This document shows, piece after piece, positions 3,296 to 35,289 of a DNA stretch of 64,000 bases. The notes under the pieces were generated by a model. The model searched no databases. It saw only the letters and a program-made list of their open reading frames with translations, and was not told the DNA's origin. The DNA comes from Pyrococcus yayanosii CH1. GTDB taxonomy: Archaea; Methanobacteriota_B; Thermococci; Thermococcales; Thermococcaceae. The position numbers were made by a program, and so were the translations under genes. Positions within the stretch are counted from its first letter, which is position 1, and the number at the start of each line of letters is the position of its first letter. Location of the stretch: assembly GCF_000215995.1 (NCBI RefSeq), contig NC_015680.1, positions 62,001-126,000 of the forward strand, in the 5' to 3' direction.

Positions 3296-4600
3296 ATGAT
3301 AGAGAAGGTCTACTGCGCTGAGGTTAAGCCCGATATGGATGGAAAGAAAGTCAGGCTGGCCGGATGGGTTTACACAAACATGAGGGTCGGCAAGAAGGTC
3401 TTCCTGTGGATAAGGGACTCCACAGGAATAGTGCAGACAGTTGTTGCGAGGGGCGTCGTAGATGAGGAGACCTTTAACACGGCGAAGAAGCTTGGCAGGG
3501 AGTCCAGCGTCATAGTTGAAGGGATAGTGAAGGCCGACGAGAGGGCCCCAGGTGGGGCTGAGGTCCACGTGGAGAGGCTCCAGATAATTCAAGCCGTCAG
3601 CGAGTTTCCGATTCCAGAGAACCCTGAGCAGGCGAGCCCCGAACTTCTCCTGGACCTTAGGCACCTCCACCTCCGCTCCCCTAAGGTTGCGGCGATAATG
3701 AAGGTCAAGGCAACGCTGATGCAAGCAGCCAGAGAGTGGCTCCTCCAGGACGGCTGGTATGAGGTCTTTCCGCCGATACTCGTTACTGGAGCGGTTGAGG
3801 GTGGGGCAACACTCTTCAAGCTCAAATACTTCGATCGCTATGCCTACCTAAGCCAGTCCGCTCAGCTCTACTTGGAGGCCGCTATATTCGGCCTCGAAAA
3901 GGTCTGGTCGCTAACGCCGAGCTTTAGGGCAGAGAAGAGTAGGACGAGAAGGCATTTAACGGAGTTCTGGCACCTCGAGCTTGAGGCGGCGTGGATGGAC
4001 CTTTGGGACATAATGAAGGTTGAAGAGGAACTCGTCAGCTACATGGTGCAGCGGACTTTGGAGCTGAGGAGGAAGGAGATAGAGACCTTCAGGGACGATC
4101 TCACCACCCTTAAGAACACTGAGCCACCCTTCCCACGCATAAGCTACGACGAGGCGATAGAGATACTCCAGTCAAAGGGCGTGAACATTGAATGGGGCGA
4201 CGACATGGGTGCCGACGAGGAGCGCATTTTGACCCAGGAGTTCGACAGGCCCTTCTTCGTCTACGGTTACCCCAAGCACATAAAGGCATTCTACATGAAG
4301 GAGGATCCCGAGGATCCAAGGAAGGTCTTGGCGGCGGACATGCTAGCTCCAGAGGGATACGGCGAGATAATAGGGGGCTCGCAGAGGGAAGAGGACTGGG
4401 AGAAGCTGAGGCAGAGAATAATCGAGGAGGGCATGGATCCAAAGGACTACGAATGGTACTTAGATCTCAGGAAGTATGGCTCCGTTCCACACAGCGGCTT
4501 TGGCCTCGGTCTCGAGAGGCTCGTGGCTTGGATCCTCAAGCTCGACCACATCCGCTGGGCTACCCTCTTCCCGAGGACGCCGAACAGGATTTATCCATAA
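3296..4600 (+). CDS. asnS: Asparaginyl-tRNA synthetase (class II)
   Basis: A 434-aa class IIb synthetase. An N-terminal OB-fold anticodon-binding domain (about residues 15-95, RLAGWVYTNMRVGKK) is followed by the catalytic domain with motif 2 (LTPSFRAEKSRTRRHLTEF) and motif 3 (SGFGLGLERLVAWIL). It resembles the archaeal AsnRS rather than the non-discriminating AspRS group, as in Pyrococcus. It starts after GGTGAT. A strong promoter ACTTATATATC is at 3236-3246, giving a leader of about 30 nt. The gene is monocistronic and convergent with purF. Confidence 0.92.
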   Translation: MIEKVYCAEVKPDMDGKKVRLAGWVYTNMRVGKKVFLWIRDSTGIVQTVVARGVVDEETFNTAKKLGRESSVIVEGIVKADERAPGGAEVHVERLQIIQAVSEFPIPENPEQASPELLLDLRHLHLRSPKVAAIMKVKATLMQAAREWLLQDGWYEVFPPILVTGAVEGGATLFKLKYFDRYAYLSQSAQLYLEAAIFGLEKVWSLTPSFRAEKSRTRRHLTEFWHLELEAAWMDLWDIMKVEEELVSYMVQRTLELRRKEIETFRDDLTTLKNTEPPFPRISYDEAIEILQSKGVNIEWGDDMGADEERILTQEFDRPFFVYGYPKHIKAFYMKEDPEDPRKVLAADMLAPEGYGEIIGGSQREEDWEKLRQRIIEEGMDPKDYEWYLDLRKYGSVPHSGFGLGLERLVAWILKLDHIRWATLFPRTPNRIYP

Positions 4601-4607
4601 CCTTAGC

Positions 4608-5942
4608 TCAAAACTTAAAGGCCCACTCCGGATACTCTCCCGTCAGACAGGCCATGCAGAGCTTTTCCGTTCCCACGGCCTTTTTCAATCCTTCTATGCT
4701 CAGGTAGGCCAAGCTGTCTGCTCCAATTTCCTTCCTAATATCCTCAAGGCTTCTCCAGGCAGCTATCAGCTCGTGCCTCGTTGGAATGTCTATCCCCATG
4801 TAGCACGGATACCTTATCGGAGGAGAGGCTATTCTAACGTGAACCTCCCTGGCCCCAGCCCTCCGGAGCATGGCGATTATTTGTCTCATCGTCGTCCCCC
4901 TGACTATCGAATCATCCACGAGTATTACTCTTTTACCCTCGAGCACCTCTCTGACCGGGCTGAGCTTGAGCTTGACCTTGAGCTCCCTGTAGGCTTGGCT
5001 GGGCATTATGAAGGTCCTCCCGACGTAGCGGTTCTTTATAAGGCCCTCCATGTAGGGTATGCCACTCTCGTGGGCGAAGCCGAGGGCAGCCGTCCTCCCG
5101 GAATCGGGAACCGCTATGACAACGTCTCCTTTCGCTGGACTTTCCTTGGCGAGCTCGCGCCCCATCCTGTAGCGGGCTAGGTAGACGCTTACCCCATCGA
5201 GGGTGCTGTCAGGCCTCGCGAAGTATATGTACTCGAAGACGCAGTGCCTATGCTCTTCTTTAACGAGTATCCTACTCTCAACGCCACCCTCTGAGACGAG
5301 GAAGACTTCTCCTGGCCTTATGTCCCTTGTTTCAAGGCCAAACATCTTGAGTGCGGAATCCTCCGAGGCGAAGTAGTGGCCGCCCCCCCATCCGTAGGCC
5401 AGAGGTCTGAAGCCCACGGGATCCCTTGCGACGATTAGCTCCCCTTCGAGGAGTATCACGATGGAGTAGGCCCCTTTAACTTCCTCGAAGACTCTCCTCA
5501 TGGCTTCGAACTCATCTCCCTCTTCCTTAAGGTGCCAGAGAAAGGATACACCGAGAAGCTCGGAGTCCAGGGAATGTCTGAACTTAACACCCATTCCCTC
5601 GTATTTCCTCCGCAGGGGAAGGAAGTTAGTGAGAGTGCCGTTGTGGGCGAGGGCAAGGGTTCGACCGCAACACTCAATTTCAAGAGGCTGAACTTCGCTG
5701 AGGGAGCCGGAAGTGGAATAGCGGACGTGCCCTATGGCAGCCTGAGCGTCCAGGCCATCTAGGGAATCCTCACGGAATACTTCCGGGACGAGTCCGTGAC
5801 CTTTCACCGTCCTAAGGCTCCCATTCCAGAAGCTTATCCCAGCTCCCTCCTGACCCCTGTGCTGGAGGGCTAAGAGAGCGTAGTACGCCTTTTTGGGTGC
5901 TTCGTCCGTGAGGGCCGCGAATATTCCGCACTTCTCCCTCAT
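4608..5942 (-). CDS. purF: Amidophosphoribosyltransferase (first step of purine synthesis)
   Basis: A 444-aa enzyme converting PRPP and glutamine to 5-phosphoribosylamine. The N-terminal Ntn glutaminase domain starts MREKCGIF; removal of the first four residues exposes catalytic Cys5. The C-terminal phosphoribosyltransferase domain carries the PRPP loop [13 protein letters not shown]. The C-terminal [10 protein letters not shown], with other cysteines, resembles the [4Fe-4S] type of PurF. A TATA element AGCTTTTAAGCC lies near 5990-6001. It is divergent from purC, the other purine gene here, with about 136 bp between them. Confidence 0.95.
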
Positions 5943-13970: not shown

Positions 13971-14009
13971 TCCCATCCCAGAAGGAGTCACCAGAAGAGT
14001 TTTTAGGCT

Positions 14010-14224
14010 TTCTGTGGCCCGCCCGTAACACCCGCCCCCATCAACGCCCTCGGCTTCTTTGGGCGGGCTAACCCAGACGGGCCTGTGCCCGACCAGGGTT
14101 ACCCCCGGTCATCGTGCTCCGTGACGCGGAAGGCCCTCCCAGGGGGACCTCGCTTAGGCCGGGCTGTTGCCCCCGCGTCGCACCTGACCTCACAGCTCAG
14201 CCAGGCCCTCGCGTACGGGGGCAA
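14010..14224 (-). ncRNA. H/ACA guide sRNA with three hairpins; hairpin 3 predicted to target 23S rRNA helix 69
   Basis: A 215-nt, very GC-rich segment. Hairpin 1: GCCCCCG pairs with CGGGGGC, then ACA (complement of 14165-14167). Hairpin 2: GCCCGGCC pairs with GGTCGGGC, then ACA (14084-14086). Hairpin 3: GGCCCGTCT pairs with GGGCGGGCC, then ACA (14013-14015); its upper stem CCCGCCC/GGGCGGG carries a K-turn (AAAGAA opposite GTTGATG) capped by GCC-GAG-GGC. In hairpin 3 ACA is exactly 14 nt after the upper stem. Its pocket, left GGGTTA and right GTTAC, complements GUAAC-UN-UAACCC, the conserved loop of 23S helix 69 (E. coli U1915 equivalent). The promoter TATA is 25 nt upstream of the predicted 5' end. 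Three-unit H/ACA RNAs are known in Pyrococcus. Confidence 0.85.
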
Positions 14225-14242
14225 TAAGAAAATGGTGGCTTA

Positions 14243-14253
14243 GGTTTATAACC
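14243..14253 (-). promoter_or_regulatory. TATA box of the three-hairpin H/ACA RNA
   Basis: GGTTATAAACC on the reverse strand. Its centre is about 25 nt before the first base of hairpin 1, the spacing archaeal TBP/TFB promoters use. This fixes the 5' end of the RNA near 14224. Confidence 0.75.
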
Positions 14254-14452
14254 ATGACTGCTATTATTACCACGCTTATATTTAAGCTTATCCTCTATGG
14301 AAAGTTGGATTGGTAAATTGAAAAGAGTTAATTAAGAGCAATAGTAATCAAGATCCTGAAAAATTACAAACTAAATTCTGCTAGAGAAAAATTTATAAGT
14401 ATGTTATATGTTAGTAGCAATTAATACTGCAACTAGTATGGGGGATGCCAAA

Positions 14453-14992
14453 ATGGAAAAGAAAAAAATAGGGAGTGCCCTAATTGGATTGCTCTTGGTA
14501 GTAATGACAGCAACTAATGTTAGTGCAATAACAGTAGAAAAGAACATTGTTTTGCCTGAAAGGATAACCCCTGGAGTGAAGACTGAATACTGGACAATAG
14601 AGAGGATTACATTGTACACTATCAACTATGGCCCATGGCAAATCGCCGCCATAAATCATTGCAAAAGCCAAGATGCCACATGCAGTGTTTCAAAGACGGT
14701 TGAACATTGCATGTCTGTTTCAGTGTCTGGCAGTGTTAAGGTAGGAATTGAGTTAATAGAAGCGGAACTAGGAGCGACAATTGGAGCAACGTATTGTGAA
14801 AGCACGACATGCAGTGTTACATGCCATGGTAAAGATGCCGTTCTTGAATGGAGGTATGTAGAGCCTATAAAGGAAATAGTCCAGAGAAAACACATAGTGT
14901 ATCCTGATGGACATGAGGAATTGGGTGAAACAGCATCTGCATATGTAAAAATGAATGCTGCCCCTGAATGTCGTTCGTACTGCATCCCTTGA
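14453..14992 (+). CDS. Secreted cysteine-rich protein of unknown function
   Basis: A 179-aa protein. The start at 14453 (MEKKKIGSALIG) follows GGGGGATG; ATG at 14438 is the alternative. A signal peptide with core IGLLLVVMTATNVSA ends near residue 24. The mature part has cysteines in three clusters (HCKSQDATC, CESTTCSVTC, ECRSYC), fitting disulfides outside the cell. A central Ser/Val/Gly strand region (SVSVSGSVKVGIELIEAEL) resembles beta-rich secreted proteins. TATA AATTTATAAG is at 14390-14399. It is markedly AT-richer than its surroundings. No family is recognised. It is followed 19 nt later by another exported protein, so the two are probably one operon. Confidence 0.7.
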   Translation: MEKKKIGSALIGLLLVVMTATNVSAITVEKNIVLPERITPGVKTEYWTIERITLYTINYGPWQIAAINHCKSQDATCSVSKTVEHCMSVSVSGSVKVGIELIEAELGATIGATYCESTTCSVTCHGKDAVLEWRYVEPIKEIVQRKHIVYPDGHEELGETASAYVKMNAAPECRSYCIP

Positions 14993-15011
14993 CCTAAAGG
15001 AGGTGATATTG

Positions 15012-15986
15012 ATGAAAAAATTTATTATAGGAGGGATTTTCATTTTCATGCTTTCCTTTTTTATCTTGTCACTATTAATAAATGGGAATTCTGGTAATGT
15101 TGTTCTCCAATTTGAGAACAATACTCCACCTCAGCAGCTTATCAAGACCAGCAATAATGCTTATCGGGCTTCAGAAACGAAAAGTGAGGTTACACCACCA
15201 AGTCCAAGTGATTTTATACTGCCATATGTTGGCTATATATATGGAACTCCGAATGATACAGTAGCCCAAGTGATGCTGTACTGGTGTTATCCAAAAAGCG
15301 TCGTGAATCAGTCGGTAGCCATCTCTGTAACCATGAATTTTGGCGGTTCCTTTCTGTCGGTGTCGTATAATGGCGAGGACATTCCCGTGTTTTACCATGG
15401 ATATCTCGGAATTATCCTGCCAATAAATTTTTCACAGCTAAACCTTTCAGCTCCTGGAAATTACAAATACTTAGATGTAAGCGGGGACTTATACTGGATA
15501 CAAAATGGTCGCAAACAAAGGATACGGTTGAATCTTGGGAACTGGACATTTGAAACTGTAAATGAGGAGCAGAAACTCAAGCCAAATATAACAGCGTTCT
15601 CGTTAGAAAGTATAGAATTCAAAGAGGGGACGAGAGAAGTAAAATATAGTTTTGGATTATATAATCCATTTAATGTTACGATGAGGCTTATCAATGTAAG
15701 CTTTGGCATACCTTCTAAGTTAGTCAAAATAGTCAACATAGAAGTCTATAATACTTCAACTCCCTACGAAATAGCTAAGTCAAAATTAATGTCAAGCAAA
15801 CTAATACCTCCCGAAGAGTCAAGATATTTTGTCATAACTCTCGAGATAAATGGCAAAGTTAGGAGTCTATTTATTCAGCCAAAACTTGTATATTCCATTG
15901 GGGATGAAGTTTACACAATGGCAGGACCGCCTTTCCAGGATACGGTACTACCTGTTACATGCACGTACAACATGAAAGCCTCTTGA
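15012..15986 (+). CDS. Membrane-anchored extracytoplasmic protein of unknown function
   Basis: A 324-aa protein starting at 15012 after a near-perfect GGAGGTGAT. Residues 4-22 (FIIGGIFIFMLSFFILSLL) form one membrane anchor or signal. The remainder is beta-rich and exceptionally dense in N-glycosylation sequons: NNT, NDT, NQS, NFS, NLS, NWT, NIT, NVT, NVS and NTS are all visible. The C-terminal third (KYSFGLYNPFNVTMRLINVSF) looks like an immunoglobulin-like or LEA14-like strand domain, but this is only a resemblance. It sits with the upstream cysteine-rich protein in an AT-rich island, suggesting acquired DNA and surface function. Confidence 0.7.
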   Translation: MKKFIIGGIFIFMLSFFILSLLINGNSGNVVLQFENNTPPQQLIKTSNNAYRASETKSEVTPPSPSDFILPYVGYIYGTPNDTVAQVMLYWCYPKSVVNQSVAISVTMNFGGSFLSVSYNGEDIPVFYHGYLGIILPINFSQLNLSAPGNYKYLDVSGDLYWIQNGRKQRIRLNLGNWTFETVNEEQKLKPNITAFSLESIEFKEGTREVKYSFGLYNPFNVTMRLINVSFGIPSKLVKIVNIEVYNTSTPYEIAKSKLMSSKLIPPEESRYFVITLEINGKVRSLFIQPKLVYSIGDEVYTMAGPPFQDTVLPVTCTYNMKAS

Positions 15987-16065: not shown

Positions 16066-17082
16066 TCACTTTGGGAACTTTGACGTCTCTTCGTTGGCTT
16101 TCATTATCTTTTCCCTGTATTCCTCGTACTTCTTCCTTGCATCCTCCGCCTTCTCCTTTTCGCCGAGGTATTCGTAAGCTTCGGCAACGTGCTTCCACCA
16201 CATCGGATCTTCCTCAACCTCTTTGAGGCAGTACTCTAGGAATTTCTGATAAGCCTCCCTGGCGAGCTCCTCTCTACCAAGTTTGCGCGCTATATTGCCT
16301 ACATCCTCCCAGAAGACTCCTTCTTCCTTGGCTTCCTTCATGTAGTATTCAAGAGCCTTCTCCCAGGCTCCCCTGGCTCTCTCCTCGTTGCCGAGTTCTT
16401 CATAAAGCTTAGCTACGTCCTCCCAGAACCATGGTTCTTCCTCGGCGTAGCGTTCTAATGCTTTGGCGGCCCTCTCCATGTTCCCGGCCTTCTTCCAGTA
16501 CTCGTGGGCCTCCTTGAGGTAGTAGGTGTCCTTCTCCTTCTCGTAGAGCTGCTCGTAGAGCTCAGCCGCCTTGGCATACTGACCAGCCTTCTCGTAGGCC
16601 CAGGCTGCGCTCTCTAGCCATCCCAGCTTGAGATACATCTCTGCCGCCTTTAGATAATTCCCAGCCTTCTCGTACTTCCTTGCCGCCTGCTTGTAGCGTC
16701 CCATCCTCTCCAGCTTCTCGGCAGAGCGGAAGCGGTCTGCTATGCTTAGGTCGGGCTCGCTGATGTACCATATGCCGAAAGCTACCGCGGCTACGAAGAA
16801 GGCTATAACGGCCCCCACTATCTTGAGTCTCTGCCAAGTTATGGAGAGATATGTGGCATAAGCGGACACTGCGGTTATGGGCAATAGCATGGCGGCGTAC
16901 TTCCAGCTCTCTGCGTAGAGAGTTAGGGCTAGGAAGAAGGCGAGCATCAGCGTGAGGAAAAGGAAGCCGAGCCCAAGGATTATTCTCACGAGCATCCAGA
17001 AGCCCCACTTCCACACTATCAGGCCTGCTATTCCCAAAATGATGGCGATGAATGCTGCGATGTATATTTTCAGCCTATCCAT
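16066..17082 (-). CDS. Membrane-anchored TPR-repeat protein
   Basis: A 338-aa protein. Residues 5-110 hold four hydrophobic segments, including FIAIILGIAGLIVWKWGF and IVGAVIAFFVAAVAFGIWY. From about 120 onward there are tetratricopeptide-like helix pairs (AEKLERMGRYKQAARKYEKA, LGWLESAAWAYEKAGQYAKA, LYEELGNEERARGAWEKALE). TPR arrays bind other proteins, so a scaffold role at the membrane is inferred. The start follows GAGGTGGAAGG and overlaps the end of ogt by 13 nt, making it the third gene of thiL-ogt-TPR. The partner is unknown. Confidence 0.8.
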   Translation of the reverse strand: MDRLKIYIAAFIAIILGIAGLIVWKWGFWMLVRIILGLGFLFLTLMLAFFLALTLYAESWKYAAMLLPITAVSAYATYLSITWQRLKIVGAVIAFFVAAVAFGIWYISEPDLSIADRFRSAEKLERMGRYKQAARKYEKAGNYLKAAEMYLKLGWLESAAWAYEKAGQYAKAAELYEQLYEKEKDTYYLKEAHEYWKKAGNMERAAKALERYAEEEPWFWEDVAKLYEELGNEERARGAWEKALEYYMKEAKEEGVFWEDVGNIARKLGREELAREAYQKFLEYCLKEVEEDPMWWKHVAEAYEYLGEKEKAEDARKKYEEYREKIMKANEETSKFPK

Positions 17083-31409: not shown

Positions 31410-32242
31410 AGCCGTCGTCCGGGAATATCAGGACCACCGTTCCCTCCGGCCTCGTCATCTCGTAGGCCTTCACAACTGCCCCAGAGCTCATCCCTATGAG
31501 CAGGCCGTCTCCCCTAGCCACTTTTACGACGCCCTCAAAGGCCTCCTTGGCAGTAACCTCGACGACCTCGTCAATCTCAACCTCCGATATCCACTTGGGG
31601 CCCGTTTCGAGCCTCTTTATTCCCGGTATACTCTCTCCCTCTGCCGGGACAACGCCGATAATCCTCGTCCCGTAGCGCTCCCTGAAGTACTTGGAGAGGG
31701 CCGCTATATGTCCGGACGTCCCTATGCCAGCTACTATGGCGTCGGCCTCTTTCCCTATGCTTTTCAACTGCTCCTCGAGCTCCTTTGCAGTTCCGTAATA
31801 GTGAGCCTCGAAGTTCGCGTCGTTCTCAAATTGGTTTAGATTTACTGCACCTTCCCTCGCCGCCTCCTCCTTTACGAACTCGACGAAGGCCCTGTCTATG
31901 GTCTCGAAGTCCGTCCTGACTATTTCGGCGCCAAAGATCCTTATGAGGACCTCCGTGGCCTTCGGTGTCGGCTTCGGTAGGTAGGCTTTAAACCTGTGGC
32001 CAAGAACCGCCGAAAGGGCTGCCATCGCGATTCCAACATTGCCAGAGCTGGCCTCATAGAGCCTCGTTCTCTTTCTGATATCCTTCATCATGTTGAAAAC
32101 TGGCCTGTCTTTTATGCTCCTGCTGAAGGGATTGAAGAACTCAAGCTTCGCAAAATACATCCCCCCTCAGAGCTCTCAGCTTAACGAGGGGCGTTGGTTT
32201 ATACTTTTCGAATAATTCTAGGGTGTTTGAAAACACATTCAT
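31339..32242 (-). pseudogene. Cysteine-synthase-like PLP enzyme with an apparent frameshift
   Basis: The N-terminal piece starts at ATG 32242 after GGTGA (MNVFSNTLELFEKYKPTPLV, then KLRALRG) and then leaves frame. The main piece continues as YFAKLEFFNPFSRSIKDRPV. The break falls exactly at a run of six G (complement of 32161-32166); with five G the two halves join without loss. The body has the PLP lysine (SRSIKDRP), the SSGNVGIA substrate loop, and GIGTSGHIAAL for the phosphate. Family members make cysteine from O-acetyl- or O-phosphoserine. The break may be a real mutation, a slippery site, or a sequencing error. Confidence 0.8.
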
Positions 32243-32286
32243 AGTTCTTTCACCGACTAATTCAGTGTGGAGAAGCTTTAACTTCT

Positions 32287-33474
32287 TTATGATTCCGGCA
32301 AATTCTCCGAAAGAAGCGCGAGTCCTAGGCTTAGTAGTCCCATCGCGATGACGGGGGCGAGTATCCACCACCAGTTACTTCCGTACAGCACGCCTTCCCT
32401 CATAACTTCTATCAAATAGCTACCCCAGTTCACTCCGGGTGAAAGACCAAAGAATCCCAAAATTGAAATCTGGGATATAGTTCTTGCTATAATAAAAGTT
32501 ACATGCCTCGCCGAAAATTCAAGAACAGGTTTGATGATGTACTTTCTAATGATCCAGGCTTCACTTGCCCCTAAAGCTAAGCCAGCCCTTGTGTACTCCA
32601 TCGCCTTTTCCTTAAGGGTGATCATTTTTATTGACTTTGCAAACCTTCCAAACGTTAGTATTGTGAAAATTAAGACAAAATCCAAAGTTGAAACGTTGAC
32701 GTTGTATCCGATCCCCTGTGTCGAGACTAGCCAAACAAGGACTACAAAGAAGGGTGGCATTGGAATCGCGGCTAGAACTTCAAGAATTAAGTCCATCCCC
32801 CTAATGTAAGCTGATATAATGCCTAGTGTTATTCCGAAAATTAACGTTAGTCCGCTTATAAGGAGGGAGAGAATTATCGTGTTGTTCATCCCAGCAACGA
32901 AGCCTACCCACATATCCCTCCCATATCTGTCAGTGCCAAGGAGCCCGTAACAATTCCCTTTAATCTCTAACCTTATATGTTGGTCGACCTCAATTCTGAA
33001 TATGTATTCGCCCTTCAAGACATCAAAATCTTCGGTAGAGAAGAGCAAGAAAGTTGCCGTTTTTAGAACTGCTTTTTCAGGTGGAATATCAAGCTGGGAA
33101 ACTATTGCATGCTTTGCATAAATGTTCAATGAGAGTCTTTCTTTCTTAGATGGAACTTTGAAAGTTACTTTTTTCCCATCTGGCCTTATTATGGTTATCA
33201 AGCTGCCCTTTGGAACGTCATAAAAAACAACGTCGTTAGGCCAGTCGGTGTATTTATGCACGTATCTAACTTCTCTAATTCCTTCCAACTTTAGGTCTCT
33301 TGTTTTGTCATAAAGGTAACATAGCCAGTTGGGATACGCGGATTTTGGATTGTCAACTCAGTAATTTCCGTTATTCCAGTTTCTGATGTCTTCACTCTTG
33401 ACTGATAGATTAGAAAACACGACGAATATCGTGAAGAGTGCTAAGATACCAAGGCCTAACCTTCTACTGCCCAT
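32287..33474 (-). pseudogene. Oligopeptide/dipeptide ABC permease (OppC/DppC type) with an internal TGA
   Basis: The frame starts at ATG 33474 (MGSRRLGLGILALFTIFVVF), 1 nt after the upstream permease stop, and stays open except for one TGA at 33358-33360: NWNNGNY-stop-VDNPKSAYPNW. The position is where Trp is expected, so a single TGG-to-TGA change explains it. After the stop come a periplasmic-like domain, then LLGTDRYGRDMWVGFV and the permease core with the EAA-like loop EYTRAGLALGASEAWIIRKY. Without readthrough the product is 38 residues. AT-rich like its partner. Confidence 0.8.
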
Positions 33475-33475
33475 T

Positions 33476-34465
33476 TTAACTCACCCTGGGATCTAGGATG
33501 CCTCTTATCGTCTCCAGCAGTATGGAAATTAAGAATAGAATTGTCATTATAGTTAACGTAACGACGAAAAACAAGTGATAATTAAACCGAACTATTACTC
33601 CATAGGGGGGCACTATTTCCCTAACAAAACTCTGCTTTAGAAGCGATCCAAGTCCTCCAAGTCCAAAAAGCACGTCAATTGCCACAAAATCTGTAAACAG
33701 CTCTCCAAACTTTTGGAAGCTGAAGGAACTAAGTGTTATTGCAATGTTTCTCAATACGTGCTTCCGCACTATTCTTTCTGGTAATCCTTTGGCTCTATCC
33801 GCTAGCGTGTAAGGCATAGTCAATTCCTTTGGAGCTTCGTATGAAACGAAGTTGGCTATCTCCCATACGTAAATGAGGACTAGCGTTGTCACAGGCAGAA
33901 CATATCTTGTTAATGAAGGTGCACTTATCGCAATATCAGAGATTGAGAGGATCTTAAGTTTTGTCACAAAAATGAGTATTAGTACAACCCCCACCCACCA
34001 TGAGGGTACTCCGGTAAAGAATCTAGCCATGACACCTATAGCTTTGCTCCTAAGGAATTTAAGACCTAGGAAAGTTCCTATTAGCAATGCAATGCAAAAA
34101 GATCCTGCCATTATGCCCAAGCTTACTAGAATAGCCCTACTTAGATCTAAATTTGGTGTGTTCTTAAGGTACAACTTGGATCTCCTTAGCATTCCGAGGC
34201 CAACTAAGATTATGTTATTGCTTTTGCTAACCCTTGATAGCAGGAGCCTATAGTAATACTCTTCTGGAGATATGTTCTCTTTGCTTGCGTTCTCAACTAA
34301 TTCCCGATAGAAATTTTGATTCGTGACTTTTATATAATCAACAGCCTCATTTGCGTATATTCTACTGATTTTCATTCCCACAGCTCCGGCGATTATTATC
34401 ATTAGGAGGAATAGCGTGAGGTATATCCCACTTATCTTTAGGATTTTCTCCGCTGATATGCCCAT
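33476..34465 (-). CDS. Oligopeptide/dipeptide ABC permease (OppB/DppB type)
   Basis: A 329-aa membrane protein with an N-terminal helix (ISGIYLTLFLLMIIIAGAV), an external loop of about 80 residues, then five membrane helices. The ABC permease EAA loop is MPYTLADRAKGLPERIVRKHVLRN, and the family's end ILLETIRGILDPRVS is present. It follows an EcfA-like ATPase whose last 28 nt it overlaps, and precedes the broken OppC-like gene. No Opp ATPases or binding protein are adjacent. The gene is clearly AT-richer than the EcfA gene, suggesting the permease pair arrived separately. Confidence 0.85.
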   Translation of the reverse strand: MGISAEKILKISGIYLTLFLLMIIIAGAVGMKISRIYANEAVDYIKVTNQNFYRELVENASKENISPEEYYYRLLLSRVSKSNNIILVGLGMLRRSKLYLKNTPNLDLSRAILVSLGIMAGSFCIALLIGTFLGLKFLRSKAIGVMARFFTGVPSWWVGVVLILIFVTKLKILSISDIAISAPSLTRYVLPVTTLVLIYVWEIANFVSYEAPKELTMPYTLADRAKGLPERIVRKHVLRNIAITLSSFSFQKFGELFTDFVAIDVLFGLGGLGSLLKQSFVREIVPPYGVIVRFNYHLFFVVTLTIMTILFLISILLETIRGILDPRVS

Positions 34466-35289
34466 CTCAACACCTCCACAATTCTCTCTCTATCGAAGAT
34501 AATTTTATCTGTTAGCCCCATCCTCTTAAGCTCATAACTAATTTTAATCCTTGCCGGTATCCTCACTCCAATATTTTCCAGTACTTCAACATTTTCGAAG
34601 ACCTCTTCTGGCTTACCCTCCATAAGAATCCTCCCATTATCGAAGACAATTATTCTGTCGGCGTACTCGAGAAGGTATTCCGTGTTGTGTTCCACGAGGA
34701 TGACCGTAATCTTCTCCTCCCTATTGAGTAAGGCAATAAGACTGAGGACTTCCTTCCTCCCAAGAGGGTCAAGCTGGGCCGTTGGCTCATCGAGGACGAG
34801 AACCTTCGGCTTCATAACAAGCACGCTGGCGATGGCGAGCCTCTGCTTCTCCCCCCCACTGAGGTTCGGTGGAAATTCGTGCCTTTTGGCCCAGAGTCCC
34901 ACGAGCTTGAGAGTCCATCTTATCCTCCTCTCCATTTCCTCCCTTTCAATCCCGAGATTCTCGAGGGCAAAAGCAACCTCATCCTCCACCGTCATGTTGA
35001 AAAGCTGGGCGTCGGGGTTCTGGAGAACGAGGCCGACTCTCGTCGATAAGGTGGCGACGCTGTGCTCTCGAGTATTGAGGCCGTCCACGTAGACGTTCCC
35101 CCTGAACTCTCCCTTAATCGAGTGGGGGATTATCCCGTTGAGAGTCAGGCAGAAGGTTGACTTTCCGCTCCCACTCGGTCCCACTATCCCGACGAACTCC
35201 CCCTTTCTCACGGCCATACTGATGCCCCGAAGGGAGGGCTCGGGGCTGTGGGCATAGCGGAAGCTCACGTTTTCGACCTCGATTATCAT
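34438..35289 (-). CDS. ecfA: Energy-coupling factor ATPase (EcfA type)
   Basis: A 283-aa ABC ATPase of the ECF/CbiO group. Walker A is VGPSGSGKSTFCLTLNG, the Q-loop LVLQNPDAQLF is diagnostic of ECF ATPases, the signature is NLSGGEKQRLAIASVL, Walker B is VLVLDEPTAQLDP, and the H-loop is VILVEHN. ECF modules need EcfT and an S component. Neither adjoins it; an S component is at 18.6 kb. It begins with a 4-nt overlap on the stop of trkH and runs into OppB-like permease by 28 nt. Confidence 0.9.
   Translation of the reverse strand: MIIEVENVSFRYAHSPEPSLRGISMAVRKGEFVGIVGPSGSGKSTFCLTLNGIIPHSIKGEFRGNVYVDGLNTREHSVATLSTRVGLVLQNPDAQLFNMTVEDEVAFALENLGIEREEMERRIRWTLKLVGLWAKRHEFPPNLSGGEKQRLAIASVLVMKPKVLVLDEPTAQLDPLGRKEVLSLIALLNREEKITVILVEHNTEYLLEYADRIIVFDNGRILMEGKPEEVFENVEVLENIGVRIPARIKISYELKRMGLTDKIIFDRERIVEVLRWAYQRRKS

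What the first reader, a model, noticed from the sequence alone, without database searches (positions are those of the whole stretch)
14390..15986. AT-rich island coding a cysteine-rich secreted protein and a sequon-rich anchored protein
Two adjacent genes with strong ribosome sites, one promoter, low GC and no recognisable family. The first has three Cys clusters; the second carries about ten N-glycosylation sequons. The pair could be a secreted factor with its surface partner or immunity protein. This is one of the better candidates for an undescribed system.
Basis: partly seen in the sequence, partly recalled or inferred. Interest (0 to 1): 0.6.

Follow-up and report, generated by a model that had tools for sequence, protein, structure and literature searches.

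The report
Likely pore-forming toxin with immunity partner
Two neighbouring genes in a heat-loving archaeon probably make a small secreted protein that punches holes in the membranes of competing cells and a surface-anchored partner that protects the producer; the pair is shared by relatives, and the protector is repeatedly kept where the hole-maker has been lost.

Summary
In detail: a 1.6-kb AT-rich island (GC 0.389 against 0.525) carries a secreted 179-aa protein (P1) and an N-terminally anchored 324-aa protein (P2; 10 sequons, 3.65 expected). The pair is not private. In 115 genomes of the phylum the P1 mature-domain profile finds 23 places (19 genomes); all 23 are followed directly by P2 on the same strand. 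In nine places P1 is frameshifted, truncated or deleted beside an open P2; beside the 16 fully intact P1 genes P2 is never broken. P1 and P2 trees agree (r 0.71; 0 of 10000 permutations). The P1 model (pLDDT 85) resembles aerolysin-type pore-forming proteins at moderate strength (parasporin-2, Foldseek E 4e-5; best Z 6.5). P2 ends in an Ig-like domain. P1 relatives also sit on bacterial plasmids, several beside small two-TM ORFs. Best reading: a secreted aerolysin-like toxin with a membrane-anchored immunity protein, an archaeocin-like weapon. Conservation, pairing and one-sided loss are shown; pore formation, killing and protection are inferred. Cysteine richness marks some subfamilies only (0-9 Cys).

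The parts
14389..14399 (+). TATA-like promoter element (AAATTTATAAG) preceded by an A-rich stretch; a similar element lies before P1 in G007
   Evidence: read directly; alignment of upstream regions A10; the archaeal promoter consensus is recalled
14453..14992 (+). P1: 179-aa protein with an N-terminal signal peptide (cleavage about after residue 25), aerolysin-like beta fold, 8 Cys; probable toxin
   Evidence: family; signal peptide judged by eye
14711..14797 (+). P1 mature residues 62-90: alternating hydrophobic/polar stretch, candidate membrane-inserting hairpin
   Evidence: family hydrophobicity profile, 3 of 5000 shuffles as regular; modelled as strand 51-68, helix 74-81, strand 88-100
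14999..15007 (+). Ribosome-binding site of P2 (GGAGGTGAT)
   Evidence: read directly
15012..15986 (+). P2: 324-aa N-terminally anchored (helix 2-25), sequon-rich protein with a C-terminal Ig-like beta-sandwich (189-313); probable immunity protein
   Evidence: family
14008..14279 (-). HgcG RNA gene (RF00064) bordering the insertion site; not part of the pair
   Evidence: same neighbour in G006, G007, G011

Best explanation
P1 and P2 form a toxin-immunity operon. P1 is exported by its signal peptide, folds as a small aerolysin-type beta protein (probably disulfide-stapled in the Cys-rich subfamilies), and is predicted to oligomerise on the membrane of susceptible related cells and insert an amphipathic hairpin to make a pore. 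P2 stays in the producer's membrane by its N-terminal anchor, exposes a probably glycosylated beta ectodomain, and is predicted to bind its cognate P1 and stop pore assembly. P2 without P1 would be orphan immunity that protects non-producers. Shown here: conservation, strict adjacency, matching subfamilies, loss of P1 with P2 retained, fold resemblance. Inferred: pore formation, target, protection, glycosylation.
For: (1) 23 of 23 P1 places found by the mature-domain profile in 115 genomes are followed directly by P2 on the same strand; P1 is in 19 genomes, all among the 30 genomes with a P2 match better than E 1e-20. (2) One-sided loss: at 9 places P1 is frameshifted, truncated or deleted while P2 is open (L083, L086, L088, L090, L099, L115, L116, L174, L181), all in assemblies of one or two contigs; at the 16 places with a fully intact P1, P2 is open in all 16. 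Two more P1 genes (G001, G035) have a frame break in the signal peptide beside an open P2 but lie in draft assemblies and are not counted. Nine to none has a probability of 1/512 if either gene were equally likely to break first. (3) P2 is under purifying selection between genomes of which one has lost P1 (dN/dS 0.11 for G013-G033, 0.21 for G080-G090). (4) P1 and P2 trees match: r 0.71 over 17 pairs, 0 of 10000 permutations. (5) P1 model pLDDT 85.4; Foldseek best hits parasporin-2 (E 4.1e-5) and 3kog, a putative Bacteroides pore-forming toxin (E 9.8e-5), then at E 2e-3 and worse LSL lectin, epsilon toxin, lamprey immune protein, Dln1, aerolysin; weak Pfam ETX_MTX2 (E 0.015). (6) Alternating candidate hairpin. 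(7) P1 relatives on plasmids of Bacillus, Vagococcus, Exiguobacterium, Vibrio and Secundilactobacillus; 5 of the 7 plasmid genes examined have a 2-TM ORF of 50-95 aa within 600 nt. (8) At the HgcG site PIN, TPR and CDC48 proteins are 84-91% identical between Pyrococcus species but P1 69-76% and P2 46-70%.
Against: No activity is known for any member. VIA Z-scores stay below 8 (best 6.5, rmsd 9.8), a range that can reflect a common arrangement; Pfam ETX_MTX2 is below its cut-off (15.6 against 22 bits). The model puts a short helix, not a hairpin, at 74-81, and only three sequences fed it. Sixteen P2 places show no trace of P1 at all, more than the nine with a broken one, so P2 may have a role of its own. 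P2 itself is decayed in three P1-less places (L175, L184, L185). Two very close P2 pairs give dN/dS 0.36 (G007-G010) and 0.63 (G020-G063) on few changes, and selection after the loss of P1 cannot be separated from selection before it. In G011 the deletion removed P1 and also the start of P2. Of the 7 plasmid genes two (Vibrio, Secundilactobacillus) have no 2-TM neighbour, one (second Bacillus pumilus gene) is only a marginal relative (E 0.32) and the Vagococcus gene is split over two ORFs.
Confidence: 0.62

Rival explanations
1. P1 and P2 are a cell-surface pair without toxic action: P1 is a secreted structural or adhesive beta protein held at the cell surface by P2, whose C-terminal domain resembles adhesin Ig-like domains.
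For: P2 C-terminal domain aligns best to SPD-2, SdrD, ClfA and other Ig-like or adhesin domains (Z 6-7.5); strict pairing fits any complex; a shared fold shows no function.
Against: Does not predict repeated loss of P1 with P2 kept (9 to 0); the best P1 fold hits are pore-forming proteins; P2 has no match on the plasmids that carry P1 relatives.
Confidence: 0.17
2. P1 is a pore-forming or lytic protein but P2 is its receptor, chaperone or surface activator, not immunity; P1 may act on other targets such as vesicles, viruses or eukaryotic grazers.
For: Aerolysin-like toxins are reported to bind receptors through glycans (PMC9558359, passages) and P2 is sequon-rich.
Against: A receptor in the producer would be harmful; P2 is kept when P1 is lost.
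Confidence: 0.1
3. The island is a selfish addiction-like module that persists by killing cells that lose it, with no role in competition.
For: Found at several sites (HgcG-TPR, kbl-endA and others), with empty HgcG sites in G005 and G009; low GC; up to four P2 per genome.
Against: No mobility gene was recognised with the pair in the window; P1 is lost often without loss of P2.
Confidence: 0.06
4. AT-rich remnant under no selection, the pair being chance ORFs.
For: Patchy presence (P1 in 19 of 115 genomes); decayed copies.
Against: Conserved over six genera, with dN/dS 0.06-0.21 in the six comparisons with usable dS, signal peptides, RBS and invariant residues.
Confidence: 0.02

Closest known systems
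Aerolysin / ETX-MTX2 pore-forming superfamily
   Same: Predicted fold, small secreted single-lobe form, alternating candidate insertion segment. PMC3110756 (two passages seen) lists members in Halogeometricum borinquense and Methanococcus maripaludis and mentions Methanosarcinaceae.
   Different: Below the Pfam cut-off; no receptor domain; 154 residues; the two passages name no Thermococcales member and no partner gene.
Bacteroidales CDCL toxins with the BcdI surface lipoprotein (PMC11169675, passages seen)
   Same: Secreted beta pore-former acting on relatives; neighbouring gene for a surface-anchored protein that blocks pore formation.
   Different: CDC-like fold, two toxin components, lipoprotein immunity, bacteria; sequence relation not tested here.
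VARTIG loci of Thermococcales (PMC8416519: outline, parts 1-3 of 7 and passages)
   Same: Same archaea, variable islands, secreted/membrane and Ig-like proteins, toxin-immunity hypothesis.
   Different: VARTIG starts with a large (mostly >500 aa) multi-Ig arCOG07710 protein; the pair here starts with P1 and lies beside HgcG. A search of the main text finds no 'aerolysin' and no 'pore-forming'.
Known archaeocins (halocins, sulfolobicins)
   Same: Proposed role: secreted antimicrobial of an archaeon.
   Different: Sequence relation not tested here; recalled only.
DUF6426 (PF19990)
   Same: Two of 15 P1 members (best E 0.024) and the Secundilactobacillus relative (E 0.061) match weakly.
   Different: Not a confident match at those E-values (the plasmid one scores 13.3 against a cut-off of 25); no paper in the library holds the name.

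Membership tests
Aerolysin superfamily (by fold) | Aerolysin-type twisted beta-sheet lobe | tested here: met
   Foldseek E <= 1e-3 to 3 chains, parasporin-2 (2) and the putative pore-forming toxin 3kog; VIA 42 of 984 chains at Z >= 5, the 50 listed rows mostly beta pore-formers and botulinum HA70, none at Z >= 8, so moderate strength
Aerolysin superfamily (by fold) | Amphipathic pre-stem segment that becomes the pore hairpin | tested here: inconclusive
   Alternation at residues 62-90 beats shuffles (3 of 5000), but the model has a short helix there
Aerolysin superfamily (by fold) | Oligomeric pore in a membrane | not testable with these tools
   needs liposome or electrophysiology assay
Pfam PF03318 ETX_MTX2 | Score above the gathering cut-off | tested here: not met
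   15.6 bits against 22; 1 of 15 members matches at E <= 1
Pfam PF19990 DUF6426 | Score above the gathering cut-off | tested here: not met
   P1 of the window has no match at E <= 1; 2 of 15 members match, best E 0.024
Secreted toxin with dedicated immunity protein (functional class) | Toxin gene always linked to the immunity gene | tested here: met
   23 of 23 P1 places
Secreted toxin with dedicated immunity protein (functional class) | Immunity gene retained when the toxin is lost | tested here: met
   9 places with broken P1 and open P2; P2 broken at 0 of 16 places with intact P1
Secreted toxin with dedicated immunity protein (functional class) | Toxicity and specific neutralisation | not testable with these tools
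   bench assay
VARTIG | Large multi-Ig arCOG07710 protein as first gene of the array | tested here: not met
   in the window the first gene is P1; upstream are HgcG RNA and a PIN-domain gene on the other strand
Polymorphic toxin system | Long delivery protein with exchangeable C-terminal toxin | tested here: not met
   P1 is 179 aa with no delivery domain found

The most novel reading that the evidence does not exclude
P1 founds a family of aerolysin-type antimicrobial pore-formers that spans hyperthermophilic archaea and small bacterial plasmids, each lineage with its own unrelated membrane immunity protein (a glycosylated Ig-like blocker in Thermococcales, a two-TM peptide in Bacillota), making it the first pore-forming archaeocin with a known immunity gene in hyperthermophiles.
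Probability: 0.42. Interest if true: 0.8.

Novelty: new variant of a known kind. Interest (0 to 1): 0.62.

Why it matters
Weapons of hyperthermophilic archaea against one another are little known. A two-gene pair that can be cloned, with a named toxin candidate, a named protector and natural strains that keep only the protector, makes archaeal antagonism directly testable. It would also extend aerolysin-type proteins, studied mainly as toxins acting on eukaryotic cells (recalled), to probable warfare between prokaryotes, and could offer thermostable pore proteins.

Tried and rejected
Led nowhere: P1 against plasmids and phages by tblastn (no match), P2 against plasmids (no match), the P1 of G042 against phages (no match), viral contigs with P1 and P2 queries (no relatives), P1 alone in genome contigs (none; the alignment A2 found two), P1 and P2 profiles against PDB sequences (nothing better than E 0.16), NCBIfam and PHROGs (nothing better than E 0.02). 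The full-length P1 profile gave many hits of E about 1e-7 and worse confined to the signal peptide (53 genomes); I rejected these and used the mature-domain profile (19 genomes). The Tatumella plasmid hit (E 0.7) does not match the profile and was dropped. Of the 9 plasmid records I examined 7; the second Vagococcus and the B. safensis record were left out as near repeats of others. The P2 G000-G006 row was read out of frame and is not used; dS was saturated in six rows of that call. The promoter alignment is clear only for G000 and G007. Left out of the broken/intact count: L106 and L118 (contig ends, probably two halves of one gene), L093 (contig start), L092 (start of P2 lost too). Sulfolobicin and halocin sequences were not compared.

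Novelty searches: in a library of open-licence papers only; no title shown in their lists describes such a pair in Thermococcales. Papers: PMC8416519 outline, parts 1-3 of 7 and passages; PMC3110756, PMC11169675 and PMC9558359 passages only; the others search listings only.

Full report
What is there. Between an HgcG RNA gene (14008-14279, minus strand) and a TPR gene (its 3' end at 16066) sits an AT-rich island with two co-directed genes. P1 (14453-14992) is a 179-aa protein with a typical signal peptide and 8 Cys; P2 (15012-15986) is a 324-aa protein with an N-terminal hydrophobic helix, 10 sequons and two Cys. GC is 0.389 against 0.525; 4 of 1249 windows of that length are as low, all overlapping the island. 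A TATA-like element lies at 14389-14399 and the genes are 19 nt apart, so one transcript is likely.

The pair is widespread and inseparable from P1's side. In the 94 genomes of the family P1 alone as query finds 15 genomes and P2 25. Profiles of the mature P1 domain (A7, 17 rows) and of P2 (A8, 31 rows) searched over 115 genomes of the phylum give P1 in 19 genomes at E <= 0.001 and P2 in 30 at E better than 1e-20 (35 at 0.001); the 19 are all of the window's family. I fetched the surroundings of every P1 place and of the 48 P2 stretches better than 1e-20. All 23 P1 places, plus one with little more than a P1 signal peptide left (L099), are followed directly by P2 on the same strand.

Loss is one-sided. 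Of the 24, 16 have a P1 open from signal peptide to end, and each has an open P2. Two (G001, G035) have an open mature P1 but a frame break in the signal peptide; both are drafts, so this may be error. Six are damaged: frameshifts in G006 (L083) and G007 (L086), remnants in G008 (L088), G009 (L090) and G080 (L099), and a C-terminal frameshift in G050 (L106), where P2 is cut by the contig end. Among P2 places without a P1 match, traces of P1 lie just upstream in G013 (L115), G004 (L174) and G012 (L181), and G020 (L116) lacks the middle of P1 by DNA alignment to its sister locus. A uniform tblastn of mature P1 proteins over 940 nt upstream of 27 P2 genes finds traces at E <= 1e-4 in 8 (the five damaged ones above except L106, plus L115, L174, L181; not L116, whose remnant is too short), and the same search downstream finds none better than 0.17. 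So nine places have P1 broken and P2 open, and none the reverse; an intact P1 with a broken P2 would have been found by the P1 search. G011 (L092) lost all of P1 and the start of P2 and is not counted. Sixteen P2 places have no P1 trace at E <= 0.01; P2 is itself decayed in L175 and in two places of the window's own genome (L184, L185). In comparisons with usable dS, dN/dS is 0.06-0.21 (six comparisons, two of them P2 pairs in which one side lost P1: 0.11, 0.21); two very close P2 pairs give 0.36 and 0.63. Retention of protector without weapon is what toxin-immunity pairs show.

The two proteins evolve together and fast. Trees of 17 pairs fall, by eye, into the same six subfamilies (r 0.71 between distances; best of 10000 permutations 0.46); neighbours would in part be expected to agree. 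P1 is more conserved than P2 in 115 of 136 comparisons. At the HgcG site PIN, TPR and CDC48 proteins are 84-91% identical between species, a methyltransferase-like gene only 53-61%, P1 69-76% and P2 46-70%. Cys number in the mature domain ranges from 0 to 9; the six invariant columns are W, G, V, G, Q, G.

Structure. The P1 mature model (three-sequence alignment) has mean pLDDT 85.4. Foldseek against PDB gives parasporin-2 (4.1e-5, 1.3e-4) and 3kog, a putative pore-forming toxin (9.8e-5), then, at 2e-3 and worse, mostly aerolysin-type and other beta pore-forming proteins with a few others. The second aligner gives Z up to 6.5 with large rmsd; 42 of 984 chains reach 5 and none 8, so the resemblance is moderate though its targets are consistent. 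Residues 62-90 alternate hydrophobic and polar across the family (3 of 5000 shuffles), as expected of a membrane hairpin; the model shows a short helix there, and of the six stretches tested some (50-70, 100-125) do not alternate. The P2 model is poor overall (66.2) but good for 189-313, an Ig-like sandwich; Ig-like matches are common and carry little functional weight.

Beyond archaea. The Cys-poor P1 of G038 finds hypothetical proteins on plasmids of Bacillus, Vagococcus and Exiguobacterium at E 1e-6 to 8e-4, and weaker ones in Vibrio (0.01) and Secundilactobacillus (0.1); the window's own P1 finds none directly. The Thermococcales-only profile A7 confirms six of the seven plasmid stretches tested (E 4.5e-18 to 6.8e-11 among 658 ORFs) and not the Tatumella one. 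P2 has no match on plasmids. Instead, of 8 ORFs of 50-95 aa with two predicted TM segments in the six stretches, 7 lie within 600 nt of a P1-like gene, serving 5 of the 7 genes counted; one of the five, the second B. pumilus gene, is only a marginal relative (E 0.32), and the Vagococcus gene is split over two ORFs. These ORFs are mechanical, several are unannotated, and the hydropathy rule is crude, so this is a lead.

Site. HgcG was found in 8 of 9 genomes of the genus. HgcG-TPR is a hot spot: P1-P2 in G000 and G006, damaged P1 with P2 in G007, P2 without its start in G011, nothing in G005 and G009, and a different 494-aa low-GC secreted protein in G004 and G008. The kbl-endA site is another.

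Mechanism and verdict. The most likely mechanism is a secreted aerolysin-like pore-former with a membrane-anchored blocker, working like the Bacteroidales CDCL-BcdI pair (PMC11169675, passages) though of another fold. Confidence 0.62; a non-toxic surface pair is the main rival. It is a new variant of a known kind: aerolysin-like proteins, also in archaea (PMC3110756, passages), and toxin-immunity pairs are known; this combination in hyperthermophilic archaea was not found in the searches listed under Tried and rejected.

Noticed in passing
L195:1845-3326 (+) and L196:2362-3843 (+): In G004 and G008 the HgcG-TPR site holds a different gene, a 494-aa secreted low-GC protein with no Pfam family above cut-off; the site looks like an integration hot spot.
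   Followed up: partly
L184:4068-4720 (window's own genome, C1 about 34.1-34.7 kb): A decayed P2 copy lies directly after repeats that look like a CRISPR array (judged by eye).
   Followed up: no
L185:3562-4446 (window's own genome, C1 about 754.6-755.4 kb): The first part of a P2 gene runs into a serine recombinase that looks like IS607 OrfA (recalled), as if the element had interrupted it.
   Followed up: no
L200:2751-2966 and 4633-4836; L199:2741-2923 and 3412-3615; L201:2370-2597; L202:1166-1444 and 1595-1825: Small two-TM ORFs beside P1-like genes on Bacillota plasmids; possible immunity peptides of unrecognised bacteriocins.
   Followed up: partly
L113:6020-6973 (-): This P2 homologue has a lipobox-like LGC in its N-terminal segment, so some P2 proteins may be lipid-anchored rather than TM-anchored (its sequence is printed as L034).
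   Followed up: no
window 32001-35000: A second low-GC stretch (0.40-0.44) carrying two ABC permease-like genes and an ATPase on the minus strand (judged by eye); looks like an ordinary transporter.
   Followed up: partly
L083, L091, L102, L104-L106, L110-L112, L114, L116-L118: The junction of kbl-, endA- and rimI-like genes (names recalled from sequence) holds P1-P2 or P2 alone in several genera, a second hot spot.
   Followed up: partly
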